Below are positions 31,357 through 49,908 of a stretch of 64,000 nucleotides of DNA, in pieces. Source of the DNA: Wocania ichthyoenteri Th78 (GTDB lineage: Bacteria > Bacteroidota > Bacteroidia > Flavobacteriales > Flavobacteriaceae); assembly GCF_000789235.1 (NCBI RefSeq), contig NZ_KN525716.1:372001-436000 (forward strand), given 5' to 3'. The notes below the pieces were generated by a model, which was given only the letters and a program-made list of their open reading frames with translations, searched no databases and had not been told where the DNA came from. Numbering within the stretch: position 1 is the stretch's first letter; each line of letters starts with the position of its first letter. The translations under genes were made by a program, and so were the position numbers.

Positions 31357-32661
31357 ATGAAGAAAACAGTAAACATATTTTGGTTTCGTCGCGATTTAAG
31401 ATTAGAAGACAATCATGGACTATTTGAAGCTTTAAAAGGAAAACATAAGGTGCTTCCTATATTTATTTTCGATTCAGAAATACTGGATGCCTTACCAAAA
31501 AATGATACGAGAGTTACCTTTATTTACGAAACGCTTCAAAATATAAATACAAAGCTTAGCAATGAATACAAAAGTGGTATTGCTATGTTTTATGGCAAAC
31601 CTTTGGCTATCTATAAGCAATTAATTGAACAATACAACATAGAAAGCGTTTACACTAATCATGATTACGAACCTTATGCCAAAACACGCGACAAAGAAAT
31701 TGAGACGCTCTTAAACAACAACAATATTGACTTTAAAACCTATAAAGATCAAGTTGTTTTTGAAAAAAAGGAGGTTGTTAAAAGTGATGGTACACCATAT
31801 TTAGTTTACACACCATACATGAAGCGTTGGAAAGACACGTTTAAACCTTCTGATGTTAAATCTTTCCATTCGGAAGAATTATTAGATCATTTAATTACAA
31901 ACAAATCACTTCCAAATTTAAGTTTAAAAGATATTGGTTTTGAGCCTTCCCAACAAAGCATAAAACCCTATCAAGTCACTCCAAAATTAATACAAACCTA
32001 CGAAGCCACACGAAATTTCCCTGCTCAAGATAGTACATCACGATTAGGTCCGCATTTGCGTTTTGGTACCGTAAGCATTCGCAATATGGTAAAAAAAGCC
32101 ATGGCAGAAACCAACGAGGTATTTTGGCAAGAATTGATTTGGCGTGAGTTTTTTATGCAAACTCTTTGGCATTTTCCGCAGACACAAACCAAAAGTTTTA
32201 AACCCAAATACGACCGCATTATTTGGCGTAATAACGAAGTAGAATTTAAAGCATGGTGCGAAGGTAAAACTGGTTATCCTTTAGTTGATGCTGGTATGCG
32301 TCAATTAAATCAAACCGGGTTTATGCATAACCGTGTACGCATGTTAGTGGGTAGTTTTTTGTGTAAGCATTTACTAATCGATTGGCGTTGGGGCGAAGCC
32401 TATTTTGCCGAAAAACTCCACGATTACGATATGGCAAGTAATATTGGTAACTGGCAATGGGTAGCTGGTTGCGGTGTGGATGCCTCCCCATATTTTCGGA
32501 TTTTCAATCCCACAACTCAAATTAAAAAGTTTGATAAAAATTTGGAATACATCAATACCTGGCTACCAGATTTTCAAGAGCTTACCTACCCGTCACCAAT
32601 TGTAGATCATAAAATGGCACGCGAACGTTGCCTAAAAGTATATAAAGAAGCACTTAACTAA
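31357..32661 (+). CDS. phr: Deoxyribodipyrimidine photolyase (class I / cryptochrome family)
   Basis: A 434-aa flavoprotein that repairs UV-made pyrimidine dimers using blue light. The N-terminal photolyase domain starts NIFWFRRDLRLEDNHGLFEAL. The C-terminal FAD domain shows TSRLGPHLRFGTVSIR, WREFFMQTLWHFP, and GNWQWVAGCGVDASPYFRIFNP with its electron-transfer tryptophans. Length is a little short for the class but complete. It follows the oxidative-stress operon and fits a light-damage response. Confidence 0.95.
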   Translation: MKKTVNIFWFRRDLRLEDNHGLFEALKGKHKVLPIFIFDSEILDALPKNDTRVTFIYETLQNINTKLSNEYKSGIAMFYGKPLAIYKQLIEQYNIESVYTNHDYEPYAKTRDKEIETLLNNNNIDFKTYKDQVVFEKKEVVKSDGTPYLVYTPYMKRWKDTFKPSDVKSFHSEELLDHLITNKSLPNLSLKDIGFEPSQQSIKPYQVTPKLIQTYEATRNFPAQDSTSRLGPHLRFGTVSIRNMVKKAMAETNEVFWQELIWREFFMQTLWHFPQTQTKSFKPKYDRIIWRNNEVEFKAWCEGKTGYPLVDAGMRQLNQTGFMHNRVRMLVGSFLCKHLLIDWRWGEAYFAEKLHDYDMASNIGNWQWVAGCGVDASPYFRIFNPTTQIKKFDKNLEYINTWLPDFQELTYPSPIVDHKMARERCLKVYKEALN

Positions 32662-32804
32662 ACGCCATATTTTTTGATTCATTTTATAAATTATCAAATC
32701 GATAAAGTTAGTCCTATTTATATGACAAAAATCACTAAATATGGCATCGAAATATAATATATTTACAACTATGTTAAAATTTCGATAATCAAAATTTATG
32801 CTTT

Positions 32805-34472
32805 ATGACTGACTTACAAATTGCAAAAACCATTACACTTAAACCTATTTCAACCATTGCTAAAAAATTTGGTGTAGACCCAGAATATATTGAAATGTAT
32901 GGGAAGTATAAAGCAAAATTACCACTGCAAGCCATAAACAAACAAAACGCCGATAAAAGTAATTTAATCCTCGTTTCTGCTATTTCTCCAACACCAGCAG
33001 GCGAAGGAAAAACAACAATTTCTATTGGTTTATCAGAAGGTTTAAATCGGTTAAACAAAAAAACAACCGTGGTTTTAAGAGAGCCCTCTTTAGGGCCTAT
33101 TTTTGGTATAAAAGGTGGCGCAACTGGTGGCGGATACTCACAGGTGTTACCTATGGAAGATATCAATCTTCATTTTACAGGAGATTTTTCGGCTATTGAA
33201 AAAGCACATAATTTACTGTCTGCTATTATCGATAATAATATTCAAAGTAAAACAAACTCTTTATTTATAGACCCTAGAACAGTTGGCTGGAAACGTGTTA
33301 TAGACATGAACGATCGTGCGTTAAGACACATAATTGTTGGCTTAGGCGGCACAACATCTGGTATCCCTAGAGAAACAGGGTTTGATATTACTGCAGCATC
33401 AGAAATTATGGCTATTCTGTGTTTAGCCAAAAACTTAACCGACCTTAAAAATCGTTTGGGTAAAATTTTTATTGGCTACACCTTTAACAAAGCACCTATT
33501 TATGCTAAAGATTTAAAAGCCGAAGGTGCTATGGCAGCCTTACTAAAAGATGCTATAAAACCTAATTTAGTACAGACTATAGAAGGCAATCCTGCCATTA
33601 TTCACGGTGGCCCCTTTGCAAATATTGCACAAGGTACCAATTCTGTGATTGCAACATTAATGGGGATGTCGCATTCAGATTATACCGTAACCGAAGCTGG
33701 TTTTGGTTTCGATTTAGGTGCCGAAAAATTCTTTGATATTAAATGCCAAAGTGCTGGACTTAAACCTAAAACCGTTGTGCTTACCACAACCATTCGCGCC
33801 TTAAAATATCATGGTGGTGCCGATTTAAAATCGTTGACTACACCTAATCTTGATGCGCTTAAAAACGGACTTCCAAACTTAGAAAAACATTTGGAAAATA
33901 TTACAAAATTTAACGTCGCTCCAGTAATTGCTATCAATAGATTTGTATCTGACAGTGATGAAGAAATACAATTGATTAAAGATTTTGCAGCATCAAAAGG
34001 TCTTAAAGTGGCTTTGGCTGAAGTTTGGGCAAAAGGAGGCGAAGGCGCTTTAGAATTAGCACAATGTGTTATTGATGTTGTAGAATCGAAAACCTCAAAC
34101 TTTAAGCCTTTGTATAAATGGGAATCGAGCGTTACCGATAAAATAGAAACCATTGCTACAGAAATTTACGGCGCAGAACATGTGGACTATACGGCGAAAG
34201 CCAAAACACAATTAAAAAAAATTGCCGATTTAGGTTTAGAACAGCTACCTATTTGTATCGCTAAAACTCAAAAATCGTTATCTGATAACCCAAAATTATT
34301 AGGGCGACCAAAAGATTTCATCATTACCGTTAGAGAAATTGAAATCGCTGCTGGTGCAGGTTTTTTAATCCCAATTACAGGCGATATTATGCGTATGCCA
34401 GGGTTACCAGCACATCCGGCTTCTGAAAATATTGATATTAATGATGATGGAGAAATTACGGGGTTGTTTTAG
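32805..34472 (+). CDS. fhs: Formate-tetrahydrofolate ligase
   Basis: A 555-aa cytosolic enzyme that joins formate to THF with ATP to give 10-formyl-THF for one-carbon metabolism. The P-loop is TPAGEGKTTISIGL near residue 64. Further conserved segments are REPSLGPIFGIKGGATGGG, HGGPFANIAQGTNS and VREIEIAAGAGF. The C-terminal PITGDIMRMPGLP is also typical. Length matches the family. It is a single-gene unit. Confidence 0.97.
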   Translation: MTDLQIAKTITLKPISTIAKKFGVDPEYIEMYGKYKAKLPLQAINKQNADKSNLILVSAISPTPAGEGKTTISIGLSEGLNRLNKKTTVVLREPSLGPIFGIKGGATGGGYSQVLPMEDINLHFTGDFSAIEKAHNLLSAIIDNNIQSKTNSLFIDPRTVGWKRVIDMNDRALRHIIVGLGGTTSGIPRETGFDITAASEIMAILCLAKNLTDLKNRLGKIFIGYTFNKAPIYAKDLKAEGAMAALLKDAIKPNLVQTIEGNPAIIHGGPFANIAQGTNSVIATLMGMSHSDYTVTEAGFGFDLGAEKFFDIKCQSAGLKPKTVVLTTTIRALKYHGGADLKSLTTPNLDALKNGLPNLEKHLENITKFNVAPVIAINRFVSDSDEEIQLIKDFAASKGLKVALAEVWAKGGEGALELAQCVIDVVESKTSNFKPLYKWESSVTDKIETIATEIYGAEHVDYTAKAKTQLKKIADLGLEQLPICIAKTQKSLSDNPKLLGRPKDFIITVREIEIAAGAGFLIPITGDIMRMPGLPAHPASENIDINDDGEITGLF

Positions 34473-34522
34473 TTCTCGATACAATTCTCCTGCGTCGAAT
34501 TACTCGAACTGACTGGCTGACT
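34471..34522. repeat. Dispersed palindromic repeat, copy 3
   Basis: Reads, on the minus strand, GTCAGTTCGAGTAATTCGA... then GTATCGAGAACT, the clearest copy of the family. It begins at the fhs stop codon and folds into a long imperfect hairpin, so it may end the fhs transcript. It also marks the left edge of the accessory stretch. Confidence 0.65.
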
Positions 34523-34532
34523 AAAGGTTAAA

Positions 34533-34581
34533 AATACGTAGAAGTACGTATTGGTTTTATGGTAAGAAAATTCTAACTTCG
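34533..34581 (+). promoter_or_regulatory. Promoter and palindromic operator of the SIR2-HerA operon
   Basis: The perfect palindrome AATACGTA-GAAG-TACGTATT (34533-34552) touches the −33 TTG (34551-34553). A 20-base spacer leads to the near-consensus −7 TAACTTCG (34574-34581), and the SIR2 ATG is 37 bases further on. The placement suits an activator that binds next to −33. Confidence 0.55.
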
Positions 34582-34618
34582 TGAACTTGTGTTGGACTTG
34601 AACAAACCAAAAAATTGA

Positions 34619-35644
34619 ATGGAAAAAGAAGCTATATATAAACAACTTCAAGCTTGGACAAATAATATTCCACTCATAATTCTTGGAAGTGGAGCTTCTG
34701 TTCCTTTTAGGCTTCCTTCAATGTGGGTTTTAGGGGAACATATAAAAAACTCAATTAATTTTACTGATTCTCACGACCAATTTCAATTCAAAGAATTTAT
34801 CGCTGAATTTGACAAAACTGGAGATTTAGAATCAACTCTTACAAAACTTCAACTAAGACCAAACGTACTTAGTGAAATCGTAAATAAAACTTGGGAATTA
34901 GTAAGCAAATCTGATTTAGAAGCTTACGAACATTTTATTAAAAAAGATTTCGATTTTCCTTTAGCAAATCTTTTAGAATATTTTTTAAACACAGCCGGTA
35001 AAAAGGTTTCAATAATTACAACAAACTATGATAGGCTAGCCGAATATGCTTCGAGTATTGCTAAAGCAATTATTTGCAATGGGTATTCTCAAAATCTTAT
35101 AGGTCATTTTTCAAATAACATACAATCAAACAATTTAGCTTCTTTAAAAGGCTATAAGGGACAAGTAAATATTTGGAAAGTTCATGGTTCTCTAGATTGG
35201 TTTAAATCAAAAGAAGATGAAAACGTCCAATTACCAAATAGACAAAACATTCCAGAAAATTATAGCCCATTGATAGTTACTCCTGGATTAAGCAAGTATT
35301 CTGAAACACATAACGAGCCATACAGAACAATTTTTACCCAAGCTGATACTGAAATTGAACAAGCTAATGGTTTCTTGTGTATAGGTTATGGATTTAATGA
35401 TATTCATGTTCAACCAAAACTTATTACACAAATAAAGAATCAAAAACCAATTATAGTAATAACTAAAGAGCTTACTCCAAAAACAAAACAATCAATTATT
35501 GATAATAATTGTCAGAATTATATGCTGATCGAAGAAGCCAATTCAAAAGACACAAGAATTTTTTCTTCCAAATTTGGAGAGGTAATAATTGAAGATACTA
35601 GCTATTGGGAATTGGGTGAATACTTAAAACTAATAATTTCTTAA
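34619..35644 (+). CDS. SIR2-family NADase, defence protein (SIR2-HerA system)
   Basis: A 341-aa soluble SIR2-fold protein. NAD-binding and catalytic residues are visible: GSGAS (residues 23-27), TTNYDR (Asn136, Asp138), the catalytic His189 in VHGS, and GYGFND (256-261). In SIR2-HerA (Nezha) systems this subunit joins HerA in a complex and depletes NAD+ on phage infection, stopping growth. The herA gene starts nine bases downstream, as expected. The system assignment is from gene pair and family; activity is not shown here. Confidence 0.88.
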   Translation: MEKEAIYKQLQAWTNNIPLIILGSGASVPFRLPSMWVLGEHIKNSINFTDSHDQFQFKEFIAEFDKTGDLESTLTKLQLRPNVLSEIVNKTWELVSKSDLEAYEHFIKKDFDFPLANLLEYFLNTAGKKVSIITTNYDRLAEYASSIAKAIICNGYSQNLIGHFSNNIQSNNLASLKGYKGQVNIWKVHGSLDWFKSKEDENVQLPNRQNIPENYSPLIVTPGLSKYSETHNEPYRTIFTQADTEIEQANGFLCIGYGFNDIHVQPKLITQIKNQKPIIVITKELTPKTKQSIIDNNCQNYMLIEEANSKDTRIFSSKFGEVIIEDTSYWELGEYLKLIIS

Positions 35645-35653
35645 AACAACACT

Positions 35654-37396
35654 ATGGCAATATTTACATTTGAAGAATCTGCAACAATTGGTACTGTTTT
35701 TAGTGTTGATACTGCAACAATTATTGTGAAAGTTGATGAATTAGACAAACTTCGTAAACTTCAAGTAAATCATTTAATTGCTGTAAAAAGTTCAAAGGCA
35801 GGTCAACACTTAATTGGTATAATAAATCGAATTACAAGAAAGGTTTCAGATGACGAAAATTCAGCAACAGAAGATTTAGGAATGTCAAACTTCCTGCTCA
35901 CAGAAAATATTCTAAAAGTAAATCTAATTGGAACTTTAATTGACAAACACGGAGAAAAAGAAAATGTGTTTAAGCGTACTTTAGATACAGTACCAGAGAT
36001 TGAAGCAAATTGTTTTCCTATAGATGGCGAAAACATTACCAAATTTATGCGTACAATATCTTCACAAGAAAATTATGATGTGCCACTTTCTTTAGGTAAA
36101 TACTCAATTGATGAAAATGCAGAGGCATTTTTAGATGGAGATAAACTTTTTCAAAGACACGCAGTAATTGTTGGTAGTACTGGTTCAGGTAAATCTTGGT
36201 GTGTCGCAAAGTTAGTTGAACAGATAGCAAAACTACCAATGGCTAATTCACTTCTATTTGATATACACGGAGAATATAGCGGAGAAGATTTTAAAGCTGA
36301 CGGAATTCAACATTTGAAAATTGCAAATCCATCAGATTTAGGTAAAAAAGGAAATCTTGAAAACAATGTTCTAATGCTTCCTTACTGGCTTCTGACTTAT
36401 GAAGAGATGCTAGCAATGCTATTAGATAGAAGTGACAGCAATGCTCCTAATCAAGCAATGATTTTTTCAAAAACAGTTTTTAACGAAAAAGTTAAATTTT
36501 TAGAAAGTATAGGAGATACTACATTTAAAGATAGTATCACAATTGATAGTCCAATACCTTATAAAATGGAAAATGTCTTAACTGAAATTATTCGTCTAGA
36601 TACTGAAATGGTTGCAGGTTCTAGAGGAGATAAGCAAGGTCCCTTTTTCGGAAAACTGACAAGATTTATACAAAGACTAGAAGCTAAGAGTCAAGACAAG
36701 CGACTTGGTTTTATGTTTCAAGTAACAGATGATGAACTTGAAATTGATTGGCTGAATAAATTATGTAATTCGTTAATGCAAGGTTCCAGTAATAATGACA
36801 AAAAAGCTGGTGTAAAGGTTATTGACTTTTCTGAGGTCCCATCAGATGTTCTGCCATTAGTTATTGGATTAGTTGCAAGAATCGTTTTTACAGTTCAACA
36901 ATGGACTGCAAACGATAAAAGACATCCAATTTGTTTATTATGTGATGAAGCTCATTTATACATTCCTGAAAGAACAAGTCAAGATTCTGCTTCTGAGTTA
37001 GGACTAAAGAATTTTGAAAGAATTGCCAAAGAAGGCAGAAAATATGGAGTTAGTTTAACTGTTATAAGCCAACGACCAGCAGAAGTAAACAGAACAGTTC
37101 TTAGTCAATGTAATAATTTTATTTCATTGAGATTGTCTAATGCAGAAGACCAAGCTGTAATAAAAAGGCTTCTTCCAGATAATCTTTCTGGTCTAACTGA
37201 TGTTCTACCAATTCTAGATATTGGAGAAGCTTTAATTGTTGGAGATTCTTCACTTTTACCAACAAGAGTAATAATAGATGAACCTACAATTAAACCACAA
37301 AGTGCGACTATTAAGTTTTGGGAAGAATGGAGTAACAAAAAGGCTGAACAAGATATATCAAGTGCAGTAATTGGCTTAAGAAAACAGTCTAGATAA
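35654..37396 (+). CDS. HerA-like ATPase, defence protein (SIR2-HerA system)
   Basis: A 580-aa FtsK/HerA-class ATPase. The first ~110 residues form a beta-barrel-like HAS domain. The Walker A motif is GSTGSGKSW (174-182), the Walker B ICLLCDEAHLY near residue 430, followed by GRKYGVSLTVISQRPAEV and the arginine-rich LSQCNNFISLRL segment. HerA forms a hexamer on DNA. Paired with SIR2 it is part of an antiphage complex. No nurA gene is adjacent, which supports the defence role over archaeal-type DNA end processing. Confidence 0.9.
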   Translation: MAIFTFEESATIGTVFSVDTATIIVKVDELDKLRKLQVNHLIAVKSSKAGQHLIGIINRITRKVSDDENSATEDLGMSNFLLTENILKVNLIGTLIDKHGEKENVFKRTLDTVPEIEANCFPIDGENITKFMRTISSQENYDVPLSLGKYSIDENAEAFLDGDKLFQRHAVIVGSTGSGKSWCVAKLVEQIAKLPMANSLLFDIHGEYSGEDFKADGIQHLKIANPSDLGKKGNLENNVLMLPYWLLTYEEMLAMLLDRSDSNAPNQAMIFSKTVFNEKVKFLESIGDTTFKDSITIDSPIPYKMENVLTEIIRLDTEMVAGSRGDKQGPFFGKLTRFIQRLEAKSQDKRLGFMFQVTDDELEIDWLNKLCNSLMQGSSNNDKKAGVKVIDFSEVPSDVLPLVIGLVARIVFTVQQWTANDKRHPICLLCDEAHLYIPERTSQDSASELGLKNFERIAKEGRKYGVSLTVISQRPAEVNRTVLSQCNNFISLRLSNAEDQAVIKRLLPDNLSGLTDVLPILDIGEALIVGDSSLLPTRVIIDEPTIKPQSATIKFWEEWSNKKAEQDISSAVIGLRKQSR

Positions 37397-37428
37397 AGCA
37401 AGAAAAATCCACTACCTTTAAGTTTCCC

Positions 37429-37539
37429 AGCTACCGCTAAGTTTCACTTAGTGGTTTTTCAAATAACAAATTAAAATAAAGTGCTTTTCTTTTTTTAAGA
37501 ATAAAAGTTATCAGTACTAAGCAAAGCTTAGCGGTAGCT
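37429..37539. repeat. MITE-like element with 13-bp inverted ends
   Basis: AGCTACCGCTAAG (37429-37441) is the exact inverse of CTTAGCGGTAGCT (37527-37539), 111 bases in all. Two inner blocks, 25 bases (37449-37473) and 22 bases (37491-37512), match exactly at 39198-39222 and 39224-39245. It contains no gene. Confidence 0.65.
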
Positions 37540-37567
37540 TCGTTTTAAAAACCTTACTGCTACAAAT

Positions 37568-37996
37568 TTAAATCGTGCTAATCAATTTAATAACATTCTT
37601 TTTTAATGTTAAAAACACCTCTGAAGACTTGTTCTTACTATTTGCATTTTCAAAATAAGTCTCCAAAAGCATTCTGCTGTAATTGTTCTGTTCGGCAGTC
37701 CCAGAAAAATCATAAAATGCCATAGACCAATCGTCCCAAAGCATTTCTTTTGAAGGTTCTTCTATGAGTGTTGTAACATCAAAATGCCTATCATCGGCTT
37801 TTATTTTAGTATACAAGTCTAATATGACATCTTTGTTGCCTTCAATAATTTGAATAAACTGATTATTACTGTAAATAATGCAACCGGTAATCCCCTGCAT
37901 TTTATTATGCTGTTTTGCTTTTAAAAGCATATAATTTATTTCCTTTTGAGAAAAATTTGGTTCAGCACTTGACCGATAAATTACGGAATAATACAT
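37568..37996 (-). CDS. BLUF-domain blue-light sensor
   Basis: A 142-aa FAD-binding photoreceptor. All key residues line up with AppA-type BLUF domains: Tyr7 (VIYRS), Asn31 (HNKMQGITG), Gln49 (FIQIIEG), and Trp90 and Met92 (DDWSMAF). The domain covers residues 1-95; the C-terminal ~45 residues are helical with no known output domain, so it probably works by binding a partner. Its gene starts seven bases after the AraC-type gene, which is the likely partner (inference). Confidence 0.93.
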   Translation of the reverse strand: MYYSVIYRSSAEPNFSQKEINYMLLKAKQHNKMQGITGCIIYSNNQFIQIIEGNKDVILDLYTKIKADDRHFDVTTLIEEPSKEMLWDDWSMAFYDFSGTAEQNNYSRMLLETYFENANSKNKSSEVFLTLKKNVIKLISTI

Positions 37997-38003
37997 ATTT
38001 TAT

Positions 38004-39038
38004 TTAACTAGCAATTACTTTATTAATTAACTGTGGATTGGTAACACATTGAGAGGGCAACACACCAAAATATCTTTTAAATATCTTGGAAAAATAACTT
38101 CTACTACTAAAGCCTACACTATACACCAATTCTGAAACATTAAAATCGGTTTCATAAATAAGTTGTGCCGCTTTGTCTAATCGCTTTTCAGTAATATAAA
38201 CATTCACACTCTTATTAAACAAATATTTAAAGCCTTTTTGTAACTTATCTGGGGCAAGCCCAGAAATTTTCTGTAACCGCGAAACGCTTAGGTTTTCGCT
38301 TAAATTATTGGAGATAAAATTAACTGTGGCTAGAATTTAGTCTATTTCAAACTGATGAATGGGAGCGTCTCTATATTTACTATTAATATTTTTATCGTGC
38401 CTATCAATTTGAGATGCTAGCGTATTAATAATGGCTGCTTCCTTAAACAAAATTTCCGATGACGAATTAAATGAATACTTTATAACATCACTAACAAAAT
38501 TAGAGGTTCTAAAACAAATTCTTCCTGAATAACGATAATCATCCTCTTTTAAATATGTATCAGACAAAATTCTGAAGGCAATTTTTCGTAATCCAAGATC
38601 GTCTTTATCACCTATTTTTTTAAAATCGGGCTTATAAGAAATAAGGGTCATTTTTATAGGTGTATGAGCAGAAAATTTTATAGTACTCGAAGATTTTTTA
38701 TTGCGGCTCACAATAAAGTTTTGCCTAAAGTTAATTTGTTCGTAACTAAATTTATTGAATTTATGATATGCTGAACCTTCTAAACAAAAGATAAAATCTA
38801 TACTTCTTAACAGTGCTTTTTCGAAATGCCATTCTAAATCCTGTTGAAGTACAAAGTCGAATATAAATACCGAAATTTCGTTGGAGAGTTTAGTAGCTGT
38901 TATTAAGCCTTCACCATAAGATGGATCTAAATGTGTACTACAAAAACCCTCTTCCCTATTTATTTTCTTACCTAAGCTCTGTGATAGATGGTTTAAATCT
39001 TCAAAACAATCAACTCCGGATGATTTTATTGTTGTCAT
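38004..39038 (-). pseudogene. AraC-type regulator interrupted by one in-frame stop
   Basis: The frame from the ATG at 39038 codes for 233 residues, meets a TAA at 38337-38339, then continues in the same frame for 110 more to 38004. Read through, the 344-codon gene has normal AraC length. The part after the TAA has both helix-turn-helix units (LSVSRLQKISGLAPDKLQKGF; VSELVYSVGFSSRSYFSKIF). The stop sits just before the DNA-binding domain and would remove it. The N-terminal ~230 residues match no domain I know. A sequencing error is possible. The BLUF gene follows at seven bases. Confidence 0.85.
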
Positions 39039-39178
39039 AATGGTTAATTAATGCACTAGTAATTCATCAACATTATGAGAGACTTTAAAAGTAAATAAAT
39101 ATAGACAAAAAATAATGACTACTATAATTATTTTACAGTAATGGAAAACTTGTTAAATTTATATTGTTGTATAGCCCC

Positions 39179-39257
39179 ACTACCGTTAAATTTTACCTAG
39201 TGGTTTTTCAAATAACAAATTAATTTTTTAAGAATAAAAGTTATCGCCACTAAATTC
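39179..39257. repeat. Degenerate copy of the MITE-like element
   Basis: Shares exact 25-base and 22-base blocks with the element at 37429-37539, but lacks the ~17 bases between them, and its inverted ends are degraded. With the first copy it brackets the AraC/BLUF genes. The rest of the spacer 39039-39271 shows nothing else. Confidence 0.6.
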
Positions 39258-39271
39258 AAAACAGAATAAGA

Positions 39272-40582
39272 CTACTCTATCCTCTCAATATGAGCACCAA
39301 TAGCACGCAAACGCTCATCAATGTTTTCGTAACCACGATCTATTTGCTCAATATTCATAATCGTAGATGTGCCTTTTGCAGATAAAGCAGCAATTAATAA
39401 GGATACTCCAGCACGAATATCTGGCGAGGTCATGGTAGTGGCTTTTAAAGTCGATTTAAAATCATGCCCAATAACGGTAGCACGATGCGGATCGCAAAGT
39501 ATAATTTTTGCGCCCATATCAATCAATTTATCAACGAAGAACAAACGGCTTTCAAACATTTTTTGATGGACTAAAACACTTCCTCTAGCTTGTGTAGCCA
39601 CAACCAATATAATACTTAATAAATCTGGAGTAAACCCTGGCCAAGGTGCATCAGAAATGGTTAAAATAGAACCATCAATAAAATTTTGTATTTCGTAACC
39701 CTCTGTATGTGCAGGAATATGAATGTTATCGCCTTGTCTTTCTACAGTAATACCTAATTTTCTAAACACATTTGGTATCACACCTAAATCGTCCCAAGAC
39801 ACATTAGTAATGGTTAATTCACTTTTTGTCATTGCCGCTAAACCAATCCAACTTCCAATTTCAATCATATCTGGAAGCATGGTATGGTCGGTTCCGCCTA
39901 AGCTTTCAACGCCATCAATAATTAGCATATTAGAACCTACGCCACTAATTTTAGCGCCCATTCTATTCAGCATTTTACAAAGTTGCTGTAAATAAGGTTC
40001 GCAAGCTGCGTTGTAAATAGTGGTTTGTCCTTCGGCTAAAACAGCAGCCATAACAATATTTGCTGTTCCGGTAACTGAAGCTTCTTCAAGCAACATGTAT
40101 GTACCTTTTAGCTTATCGGCTTCAACACCGTAAAAATGGTCTTCTTTACTGTATCTAAATTTAGCACCTAGTTTTATAAAGCCCAGAAAGTGAGTGTCTA
40201 AACGACGACGACCAATTTTATCGCCTCCAGGTTTTGGAATATACCCTTTACCGAAGCGCGCTAACAAAGGACCAACAATCATTATAGATCCTCGAAGTCC
40301 TTTACCATCTTCTTTAAATTCTGGAGATTCCAGATATTTTAAATTAACATCATCTGCTTGAAAAGTGTACGTCCCTTGTGATTGTTTTTCTATTTTAACA
40401 CCTAGTTTTTTTAATAAACTAATAAGTTTATTAACATCTACAATGTCTGGAATGTTGTGTATTGTAACAACTTCTGGAGTCAATAAAACAGCGCATAAAA
40501 TTTGTAACGCTTCGTTTTTAGCACCTTGTGGTCTAATACTTCCTTTTAATTGGTGACCACCTTCAATTTTAAATGTTCCCAT
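39272..40582 (-). CDS. murA: UDP-N-acetylglucosamine 1-carboxyvinyltransferase
   Basis: A 436-aa cytosolic enzyme for the first step of peptidoglycan synthesis, moving enolpyruvate from PEP to UDP-GlcNAc. The start KIEGGHQLKGSIRPQGAKNEAL and the loop KPGGDKIGRRRLDTH are typical. In that loop Asp121 stands where E. coli has Cys115, the residue that fosfomycin modifies. Such Asp forms are active but resistant to fosfomycin in other bacteria. It is the third gene of a minus-strand run with DUF493 and DUF4290. Confidence 0.96.
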   Translation of the reverse strand: MGTFKIEGGHQLKGSIRPQGAKNEALQILCAVLLTPEVVTIHNIPDIVDVNKLISLLKKLGVKIEKQSQGTYTFQADDVNLKYLESPEFKEDGKGLRGSIMIVGPLLARFGKGYIPKPGGDKIGRRRLDTHFLGFIKLGAKFRYSKEDHFYGVEADKLKGTYMLLEEASVTGTANIVMAAVLAEGQTTIYNAACEPYLQQLCKMLNRMGAKISGVGSNMLIIDGVESLGGTDHTMLPDMIEIGSWIGLAAMTKSELTITNVSWDDLGVIPNVFRKLGITVERQGDNIHIPAHTEGYEIQNFIDGSILTISDAPWPGFTPDLLSIILVVATQARGSVLVHQKMFESRLFFVDKLIDMGAKIILCDPHRATVIGHDFKSTLKATTMTSPDIRAGVSLLIAALSAKGTSTIMNIEQIDRGYENIDERLRAIGAHIERIE

Positions 40583-48702: not shown

Positions 48703-49908
48703 ATGAAACAGATACCATATATACGCGTGGGCACCTCCTATTATAAACGTGTCAAAGCCCCGACCATAGCAGGCCATTTTAATGAGATCTTGGTGCACTG
48801 GAACATGGAGACCATTAAGCAAGACCATGGTAAAGACCATTTAAGTAAAGTTCTAAAATATGATGGCTTCACCTGTATTCCAAGCCATATAGACTTTAAA
48901 CAGGAATACCTGTGGTTCTATAACATTTATTCTCCTTTGGGAAAATCACCAAAGAAAGGTGATATTAACTTATCACTAAAATTCATAAATCACATCTTTG
49001 GAAAACACTACGAACTAGGTTTGGACTATTTACAATTACTTTATCTAAAACCTATCCAAGTACTACCCATTCTATGTTTGGTCTCCAAAGAGCGTTCAAC
49101 AGGAAAAAGCACCTTTTTAAAATGGCTCAAGGAGATCTTTGATAATAATCTGACATATTTAACTAATGACAGCTTTAGTAGTCAGTTCAATGCAGACTGG
49201 GCAAACAAGCTACTCATCTGTATTGACGAAGCACTGTTCAATAAGGAAGAACTCACGGAGCGCATCAAATATCTGAGTACAACCAATATCAATAAACTGG
49301 AAGCCAAGGGCAAGGACAAACGTGAGGTTGAGTTCTTTGGAAAGTTTATTCTGTGCAGCAATAATGAAGAGAGTTTTATAAAGATAGATTCCAATGAAAC
49401 CAGATTCTGGGTGATTAAAGTACCCGTAATAGAAAATGAAAATACTCATTTTCTGAAGAACTTGATTAAAGAAATCCCTGCATTTATTCATTTTTTAACA
49501 AACAGAAAATTAAGTTCAAAACATTTGACCCGAATGTGGTTTACCCCACAACAAATAAAAACCAAGGCATTATTAAAACTGGTTCAAAATAATCGTAATC
49601 GCGTGGAAAAGGAACTAGCCAGCATTTTATTAAGCGTCATTGAAAAATTTGATTTTGAAGAGGTACATCTATGTCCAATGGATGCCTTATTAGCACTTAA
49701 CAAGACCCGAGTAAAAACAGATTTAACACAACTCAGGCGGTTGCTAAAAAGGGATTGGAAATTAATCAACCAGGACAACTCAAATAGCTACCAGAAATTT
49801 GTGATCTGGACGGACGGCGATATAAACTTATTGGATGCCAAAGGCAGATATTTTACCGTACAAAAATCATTTTTAACTAAAAATTTTGATGATACGATGA
49901 TAGATTGA
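48703..49908 (+). CDS. SF3-type helicase (primase-helicase, DUF5906-like)
   Basis: A 401-aa ATPase. Walker A is SKERSTGKSTFLKW near residue 128, Walker B LLICIDEALF near residue 170, and the sensor strand FILCSNNEESF near residue 210. This is the layout of D5-like helicases used by phages and small mobile elements for replication. The last ~100 residues look like a winged helix. It is followed by an iteron-like region and the primase gene, so it probably helps the element replicate. Confidence 0.85.
   Translation: MKQIPYIRVGTSYYKRVKAPTIAGHFNEILVHWNMETIKQDHGKDHLSKVLKYDGFTCIPSHIDFKQEYLWFYNIYSPLGKSPKKGDINLSLKFINHIFGKHYELGLDYLQLLYLKPIQVLPILCLVSKERSTGKSTFLKWLKEIFDNNLTYLTNDSFSSQFNADWANKLLICIDEALFNKEELTERIKYLSTTNINKLEAKGKDKREVEFFGKFILCSNNEESFIKIDSNETRFWVIKVPVIENENTHFLKNLIKEIPAFIHFLTNRKLSSKHLTRMWFTPQQIKTKALLKLVQNNRNRVEKELASILLSVIEKFDFEEVHLCPMDALLALNKTRVKTDLTQLRRLLKRDWKLINQDNSNSYQKFVIWTDGDINLLDAKGRYFTVQKSFLTKNFDDTMID

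What the first reader, a model, noticed from the sequence alone, without database searches (positions are those of the whole stretch)
34619..37396. SIR2-HerA (Nezha-type) antiphage operon
A SIR2 protein with intact NADase residues (Asn136, His189) is followed after nine bases by a HerA ATPase with intact Walker motifs. This matches a known class of defence systems that deplete NAD+. It sits in an accessory stretch bounded by repeats.
Basis: partly seen in the sequence, partly recalled or inferred. Interest (0 to 1): 0.6.

Follow-up and report, generated by a model that had tools for sequence, protein, structure and literature searches.

The report
Phage-defence gene pair, former mobile cassette
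A bacterium carries a known two-gene anti-virus system (SIR2 and HerA), and some of its closest relatives elsewhere sit inside arrays of gene cassettes that resemble, but do not match, classical integrons, which suggests how such defences may spread.

Summary
The core observation holds: SIR2 (34619-35644, N136 and H189 intact), nine bases, then HerA (35654-37396, Walker motifs intact). Both match PADLOC SIR2 and HerA models over full length; a modest SIR2 model is most like SIR2 of solved SIR2-HerA entries. It is a member of a known defence kind (SIR2-HerA, 'Nezha'); NAD+ depletion is inferred, not shown. The repeats bound the neighbouring BLUF/AraC genes, not this pair.

The new part lies outside the window. 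Pairs with 85-92% (SIR2) and 94-95% (HerA) identity occur in other genera and another order. Of nine distinct pairs, two are complete cassettes between attC-like sites, four keep one site or end motifs, three show none. Site ends follow the cassette rule in 59 of 65 steps. Yet only 3 of 65 ends fit the classical GTTRRRY, the 16-bp stem has no bulge, and the linked recombinase lacks the IntI insertion in 21 of 21. Sites occur in 332 of 397 sampled genomes of the family and at least 42 times in this genome, but none convincingly in the window: its copy looks like a stranded cassette that lost its site. Movement was not shown by experiment.

The parts
34619..35644 (+). SIR2-domain protein, 341 aa; predicted NADase; N136, D138, H189, G256, D261 and H263 invariant in 25 of 25 aligned proteins
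35654..37396 (+). HerA (DUF87) ATPase/translocase, 580 aa, Walker A 174-181, Walker B region from 428
34600..37405 (+). DNA block shared with unrelated loci in other genera and another order; corresponds to the inside of the cassette (about 19 nt before the SIR2 start to about 9 nt after the HerA stop)
   Evidence: blastn 80.8-88.7% over about 2.8 kb to L002-L005 and L061-L064, no match beyond it at E<=1e-3; boundaries
34473..34618 (+). Intergenic stretch before SIR2; pieces of it recur in the genome (6 further matches at E<=1e-3); no attC-like site (best 2.6 bits)
37397..37567 (+). Stretch after HerA; no convincing attC-like site: best 11.7 bits (E 0.007 for a 241-base search, model positions 21-115 only), on the inverted repeat 37429-37539; 9.1 bits on the other strand
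32662..39271 (.). Variable interval between phr (31357-32661) and murA (39272-40582); holds fhs, SIR2, HerA, BLUF, AraC here; about 160 bp in G006 and about 560 bp in G392

Best explanation
The pair is a SIR2-HerA (Nezha-type) antiphage system. Most likely HerA forms a hexameric ATPase ring that carries SIR2 subunits; a phage cue (DNA or a replication state) acts through HerA and switches SIR2 on; SIR2 hydrolyses NAD+ and the starved cell stops the phage. Identity of the proteins, their pairing, intact active sites and selection are shown; complex, trigger, NADase activity and protection are inferred from named homologues. The pair probably descends from a gene cassette: close relatives are cassettes in arrays of attC-like sites that look recombined at G|TT, probably by a Xer-type tyrosine recombinase encoded at the head of arrays. 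The window copy sits outside any array, between fhs and BLUF/AraC, without a convincing attC-like site, and so is probably no longer movable as a cassette.
For: System; HerA beside SIR2 in 21 of 23; dN/dS about 0.03-0.11 between the window and seven close copies in both genes. Transfer: 88.7% nucleotide identity to Labilibaculum (order Marinilabiliales), while fhs is 74-76% within the genus; the tree of the joined proteins groups Labilibaculum with Subsaximicrobium (100%) and the window with these two (89%). Cassette: complete attC-like sites on both sides in G014 and Subsaximicrobium; rule R' -> next R'' in 59 of 65 steps against 6 of 65 within one site, shuffles mean 4.1, maximum 11; 99.5% of cells paired, covariation 0.393 against 0.092 shuffled; bottom strand folds better in 20 of 21 sites; 55 of 56 ORFs on one strand in the G014 stretch. 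Stranded copy: no convincing site in the window although the genome has at least 42; copies without sites nest among copies with them.
Against: No experiment. Three of nine distinct pairs (window, Wenyingzhuangia, G172) show no cassette boundary and only two of nine have complete sites on both sides, so the direction (cassette first, or chromosomal pair first) rests on nesting in a ten-taxon tree with weak nodes in the single-gene trees (46-70%). The one site of 21 that folds better on the wrong strand is the site right after SIR2-HerA in G014 (-20.8 top, -17.8 bottom). The recombinase was found (E<=1e-60) in only 170 of 397 genomes against 332 with sites; G008, G062 and G128 have it without a site at the cut-off, and many copies hold stop codons. 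No attI was looked for. How the window copy reached its place is unknown. The SIR2 model is modest (pLDDT 60.8) and the HerA model failed (32.5). HerA is closer to chains of 9c1m, 8ziq and 8xau than to HerA of solved SIR2-HerA complexes, so activation may differ.
Confidence: 0.72

Rival explanations
1. Same SIR2-HerA defence pair, but it spreads by ordinary island or illegitimate recombination; the attC-like sites around some copies are incidental because such sites are common in these genomes.
For: Sites are in 332 of 397 sampled genomes of the family, so chance neighbourhood is possible; three of nine copies lack any boundary; the window copy is outside arrays.
Against: The DNA shared by unrelated loci stops at the cassette edges; the site before and the site after the pair carry matching GTTGTGC/GCACAAC ends in G014 and Subsaximicrobium, as the rule demands, and the same ends remain in Mariniflexile and Amniculibacterium.
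Confidence: 0.18
2. SIR2-HerA pair acting mainly as a nuclease/helicase defence or in plasmid exclusion, with NAD+ hydrolysis secondary.
For: 125 plasmid records hold a relative, the best at 39-40% identity, with a DUF87 gene next to SIR2 on the one fetched, pAFAEC; [quoted passage not shown] coli pair.
Against: Active-site N and H invariant in 25 of 25; passages of PMC11559045 report that mutating the SIR2 active site abolished phage resistance in V. cholerae.
Confidence: 0.1
3. A decayed, inactive remnant kept by chance.
For: It stands outside arrays, without a convincing site, near an AraC gene broken by a stop codon.
Against: Both reading frames and motifs intact, dN/dS far below 1.
Confidence: 0.04

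Closest known systems
SIR2-HerA / Nezha antiphage system (E. coli 8su9/8sub/8uae; 8wld; V. cholerae classical biotype, PMC11559045)
   Same: Two genes, SIR2 and HerA; N/H active site; DUF87 ATPase; best fold matches of the SIR2 model.
   Different: SIR2 is short (341 aa against solved chains of 381-428 aa) and only distantly similar to them in sequence (E 1.7e-12 to 1.2e-4); HerA is nearest to 9c1m, 8ziq and 8xau chains; carried by cassettes in some relatives.
Defence cassettes of Vibrio sedentary chromosomal integrons (passages of PMC12409362, which cites Darracq et al. and Getz et al.)
   Same: Defence genes as cargo of long cassette arrays with palindromic sites.
   Different: Other phylum; site consensus, bulge-free stem and recombinase differ; the two-gene, 2.8-kb cassette is large by the standard of the passage on streamlined systems (inference).
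Classical integron (IntI + attC + attI)
   Same: Array of mostly co-directional ORFs with sites between; rule R' -> next R''; bottom strand folds better; tyrosine recombinase at array head.
   Different: 3 of 65 R' fit GTTRRRY (consensus recalled); no bulge in the 16-bp stem; recombinase lacks the IntI insertion in 21 of 21; recombinase runs in the same direction as the cassettes.

Membership tests
SIR2-HerA (Nezha) defence system | SIR2 gene directly followed by HerA on one strand | tested here: met
   9-nt gap
SIR2-HerA (Nezha) defence system | SIR2 NADase residues (Asn, His) present | tested here: met
   N136, D138, H189 invariant in 25 of 25
SIR2-HerA (Nezha) defence system | HerA/DUF87 ATPase with Walker A and B | tested here: met
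SIR2-HerA (Nezha) defence system | Matches defence models for both proteins | tested here: met
   (PADLOC, full length). NCBIfam antiphage equivalogs were hit below their cut-offs (30.6 of 500; 309.1 of 850), so it is not an equivalog of those named members
SIR2-HerA (Nezha) defence system | SIR2 fold as in solved SIR2-HerA complexes | tested here: met
   ranks 1-19 of 25 matches at E<=1e-3 are SIR2 chains of 8wld, 8yhx, 8sub, 8uae, 8suw, 8su9, 8sxx; TM only 0.41-0.47 and the model is modest
SIR2-HerA (Nezha) defence system | 12:6 SIR2:HerA complex | not testable with these tools
SIR2-HerA (Nezha) defence system | NAD+ depletion on infection and phage protection | not testable with these tools
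   needs bench work
Classical integron cassette (for the relatives in G014 and Subsaximicrobium) | Palindromic site after the gene; end of one site complements start of next (G|TT exchange) | tested here: met
Classical integron cassette (for the relatives in G014 and Subsaximicrobium) | R' = GTTRRRY and extrahelical bases (recalled) | tested here: not met
   3 of 65 (58 of 65 begin GTT); 16 stem pairs without a bulge in 21 sites
Classical integron cassette (for the relatives in G014 and Subsaximicrobium) | Integrase of IntI type with the additional domain (recalled) | tested here: not met
   motif spacing 65 in 21 of 21; IntI4 (2a3v) has about 43 more residues there; TIGR02249 209.5 below cut-off 265
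Classical integron cassette (for the relatives in G014 and Subsaximicrobium) | attI site next to the integrase | not tested
   not searched for
Movable cassette (window copy) | attC-like site next to the pair | tested here: not met
   whole window at most 14.4 bits (elsewhere in it), 2.6 bits upstream and 11.7 bits downstream of the pair, against 43 bits or more for sites accepted in L loci

The most novel reading that the evidence does not exclude
Flavobacteriaceae, and more thinly other Bacteroidota, use a distinct integron-like platform that surveys based on IntI and classical attC models largely miss: bulge-free attC-like sites with two wobble pairs (invariant in the 21 modelled) that could select the strand, recombined by a Xer/XerA-type recombinase with an extra N-terminal part. 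It banks defence genes, and SIR2-HerA is one of its large cargoes that has escaped into the chromosome here.
Probability: 0.6. Interest if true: 0.8.

Novelty: new variant of a known kind. Interest (0 to 1): 0.58.

Why it matters
As a defence pair this is an ordinary member of a known class. What matters is the route: closely similar SIR2-HerA pairs appear to have moved between genera and orders as gene cassettes, and the cassettes belong to an integron-like platform whose sites are in 332 of 397 sampled genomes of this family. The IntegronFinder 2.0 paper (passages) names one complete integron in Bacteroidetes proper (Salinibacter ruber), so such arrays could be a large, little-seen store of defence genes and a second natural way to build cassette arrays. 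It makes testable how a recombinase without the IntI-specific insertion picks one strand of a folded site.

Tried and rejected
HerA structure prediction from six sequences failed (pLDDT 32.5) and was not used. Viral contigs: 17 pattern matches, none confirmed; a single-protein query finds close relatives only. Phage records: three weak matches, one covering 85% of the query at 22.5% identity; so a phage-borne origin was dropped. Rfam: no family reached its gathering score in L061 and L003. Considered and rejected for these sites: chance palindromes (covariation and succession rule); REP/IS ends (sites between ORFs, one strand, succession rule). Considered for the window copy: a hidden decayed site. 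By eye the stretch after HerA has a short likeness to the right arm of another site, and the unfiltered model search gave 11.7 bits (E 0.007 for 241 bases) on the inverted repeat 37429-37539 without the end boxes; I do not claim it. My GC3 figures for minus-strand genes were computed in the wrong frame and none is used. Two motif scripts for the recombinase spacing found only 6 and 7 of 20 because the motif was too strict; replaced by an alignment. The succession test used five stretches (L061, L101, L102, L094, L003); the other fetched array stretches of this genome (L095, L096, L097, L099, L100) were not tested.

Literature: ten searches, judged from the listings. None listed a paper on integron-like arrays of Flavobacteriaceae or on SIR2-HerA cassettes; the library holds no preprints and few subscription papers, so this is not proof of novelty. 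PMC8618304 lists Bacteroidota among phyla with integrons (passage). Passages, not whole papers, were seen of PMC8618304, PMC9668308, PMC11559045, PMC13092281, PMC12409362, PMC9024848 and PMC12409358.

Full report
Observation. SIR2 is 34619-35644 (341 aa), HerA 35654-37396 (580 aa), both on the plus strand, nine bases apart. N136 lies in TTNYD, H189 in HGS, Walker A in GSTGSGKS at 174 and the Walker B region in LLCDEAH at 428. Pfam gives SIR2_2 (4.5e-11) and DUF87 (5e-25); PADLOC gives SIR2 (7.4e-129) and HerA (6.1e-244), both full length. NCBIfam's antiphage SIR2 and HerA equivalogs are hit below their cut-offs.

Repeats. The 49-nt repeat 37426-37474 returns at 39175-39223, with a 30-nt companion at 37491 and 39224. 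These stand on either side of the BLUF and AraC genes, not of the SIR2-HerA pair. A search with 37420-37545 finds two places in the genome, itself included. Upstream of SIR2 short pieces of 34473-34618 recur at six other places.

Family. I infer Flavobacteriaceae because contig C26 of G323, a genome of the same family, has the length (11,203) and SIR2 match of the Mariniflexile sp. AS56 record, and Subsaximicrobium, a close carrier, belongs to that family.

Site. In G006, of the same genus, phr and murA are about 160 bp apart; in G392 about 560 bp. In the window 6.6 kb lies between them: fhs, SIR2, HerA, BLUF, AraC. In G240 murA has other neighbours on that side. fhs is elsewhere in these three species, at 78-79% protein identity, against 95% for murA. 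SIR2 has no match in 3 of 3 other species of the genus in the sample, and a match at E<=1e-3 in 23 of 397 genomes of the family, of which five including this one are of the close type (81% or more). HerA lies in the same fetched stretch in 21 of 23; the stretches of the other two reach 1.5 kb or less beyond the match. The SIR2 gene is single copy here.

Function. Seventeen residues, among them N136, Y137, D138, H189, G190, S191, G256, D261 and H263, are invariant in 25 of 25 SIR2 proteins that I aligned (two of the 27 distinct ones at hand, L019 and L027, were left out before aligning). Foldseek of the SIR2 model (pLDDT 60.8, pTM 0.58, six sequences) puts SIR2 chains of SIR2-HerA work (8wld, 8yhx, 8sub, 8uae, 8suw, 8su9, 8sxx) at ranks 1-19 of 25 matches at E<=1e-3, with low TM scores (0.41-0.47). 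Selection, from the values: dN/dS 0.063 (SIR2) and 0.048 (HerA) against Labilibaculum, 0.107 and 0.049 against G350; about 0.23 and 0.10 against the distant Amniculibacterium; dS is near or above 1 in several comparisons, so these are rough. The reading of the mechanism (NAD+ depletion, HerA needed) rests on passages of PMC11559045, where the V. cholerae pair was deleted and mutated, and of PMC12409358. Nothing was assayed here.

Transfer. A genome scan by peptide patterns, which finds close relatives only, gave five loci, four of them at 85-92% SIR2 identity: Labilibaculum filiforme, Subsaximicrobium wynnwilliamsii, Wenyingzhuangia sp. and Mariniflexile sp., with Amniculibacterium aquaticum at 52%. 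HerA is 94-95% in the four. Labilibaculum belongs to another order, Marinilabiliales. DNA identity of the pair to Labilibaculum is 88.7%, whereas fhs between species of the window's genus is 74-76%. The shared DNA runs from about 34600 to 37405 and no further at E<=1e-3. In a tree of the joined proteins the window copy groups with Labilibaculum and Subsaximicrobium (89%; those two together 100%), inside a larger group that includes G014.

Cassette boundaries. Upstream of several of these pairs stands GTTGTGC and downstream GCACAAC. In G014 and Subsaximicrobium these belong to complete palindromic sites on both sides (20 sites of 129-135 nt in the two loci). Of nine distinct pairs: both sides complete in two (G014, Subsaximicrobium); one side by the model in two (Labilibaculum upstream; G350 downstream, shortened, 57 bits); end motifs only in two (Mariniflexile, Amniculibacterium); none in three (window, Wenyingzhuangia, G172). 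G323 and Mariniflexile were counted once.

Nature of the sites. From 21 sites (14 of G014, 6 of Subsaximicrobium, 1 of Labilibaculum) a bottom-strand alignment was made and a 19-pair structure written by hand. 99.5% of 399 cells pair; covariation 0.393 against 0.092 in shuffles; sliding the partner by 1-3 columns gives 30-50% paired. The structure was read from these same sites, so the paired fraction is favoured; covariation is the stronger part. Two pairs are G-T wobbles in all 21, which are A-C mismatches on the other strand. The bottom strand folds better in 20 of 21; the exception is the site right after SIR2-HerA in G014. In five stretches the last four bases of a site complement the first four of the next site in 59 of 65 steps, of the same site in 6 of 65; shuffles give 4.1 on average, at most 11 (one step with masked bases is counted as a miss). 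This is the trace expected when cassettes join at G|TT. In the 57-kb stretch around the G014 pair 55 of 56 ORFs run the same way; in four array stretches of this genome 17 of 18, 9 of 14, 10 of 13 and 12 of 13 run with the cassettes. Only 3 of 65 site ends fit GTTRRRY, though 58 begin with GTT (that consensus is recalled).

Recombinase. A 388-aa tyrosine recombinase is encoded 4 kb before the largest array of this genome, with two genes between. A relative heads the G014 array, whose listed sites span C1:2728773-2791660. It matches NCBIfam NF040815 at 221.8 (cut-off 220) and the integron integrase TIGR02249 at 209.5 (cut-off 265). Its best PDB matches are XerC-like 4a8e and XerA 5hxy, then IntI4 (2a3v); against IntI4 the alignment breaks where IntI4 has about 43 more residues. 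The spacing of two motifs across that place is 65 residues in 21 of 21 relatives measured. Reading the truncated match lists for 20 genomes chosen because they carry the recombinase, I find listed sites within about 10 kb of it in 13, each time downstream of it and with cassettes in its own direction; for seven (G207, G168, G287, G118, G302, G078, G200) the listed rows show none nearby. Against the link: it was found at E<=1e-60 in 170 of 397 genomes, fewer than have sites; G008, G062 and G128 have it but no site at the cut-off; many listed copies hold stop codons.

Spread. The model finds at least 42 sites at E<=1e-3 in this genome (150 of 4136 candidates were scored), sites at E<=1e-6 in 332 of 397 genomes of the family, and at E<=1e-8 in 66 of 296 genomes drawn from the phylum, including other classes. 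E-values of the model are rough. None of the 42 lies in the window; the nearest is 8 kb before it. In the window the best match has 14.4 bits, far from the pair; directly around the pair unfiltered searches give at most 2.6 bits upstream and 11.7 bits (E 0.007 for 241 bases) downstream.

Neighbours in arrays. Of 49 ORFs scanned from the G014 array, PADLOC hits 144 families, of which 25 are shown; among these, besides SIR2 and HerA, are PtuA and PtuB (Septu) and PDC-S59. A PtuA-like ATPase and an HNH protein share the third cassette after SIR2-HerA. In Amniculibacterium the pair is followed by a ThsB-like TIR protein and a TPR-S protein. This genome and G014 share cassettes: one 186-aa protein is 84% identical and lies at two places in G014 and at one in this genome's array.

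Verdict. The finding is real and its class assignment is right. As a system it is a new member of a known kind. With its cassette-borne relatives it is a new variant, and the platform behind it may be new; that last claim depends on experiments and on a check with standard integron software that I could not run.

Noticed in passing
own genome G000:C1 about 1162-1183 kb, 990-999 kb, 314-317 kb (outside the window): Arrays of attC-like sites with small, mostly co-directional ORFs; at least 42 sites in all; recombinase gene at C1:1157320-1158483.
   Followed up: partly
window 38004-39038, minus strand: AraC-type regulator gene is split by an in-frame stop into 233-aa and 72-aa ORFs in one frame; next to a BLUF photoreceptor gene.
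   Followed up: partly
window 37426-37540 and 39175-39253: Repeat pair flanking the BLUF/AraC genes; the first copy is framed by a 24-nt inverted repeat (37429-37452 / 37516-37539); two copies found in the genome.
   Followed up: partly
window 32805-34472: fhs lies in the variable phr-murA interval here but elsewhere in three species of the genus, at 78-79% identity, much lower than murA (95%): moved or replaced.
   Followed up: partly
L061:4496-5773 (G014), minus strand: A second, longer tyrosine recombinase (426 aa) sits as cargo in the array, in the second cassette after SIR2-HerA.
   Followed up: no
window 48703-49908: DUF5906/VapE-like protein, possible remnant of a mobile element.
   Followed up: no
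L006:3205-4861 (Amniculibacterium): ThsB-like TIR gene and TPR-S gene directly after the SIR2-HerA pair: perhaps two NAD-linked defences side by side.
   Followed up: no
window 35654-37396: HerA is closer to HerA chains of 9c1m, 8ziq and 8xau (entries that do not appear among the SIR2 matches) than to HerA of solved SIR2-HerA complexes; hints at exchange of effector partners.
   Followed up: no
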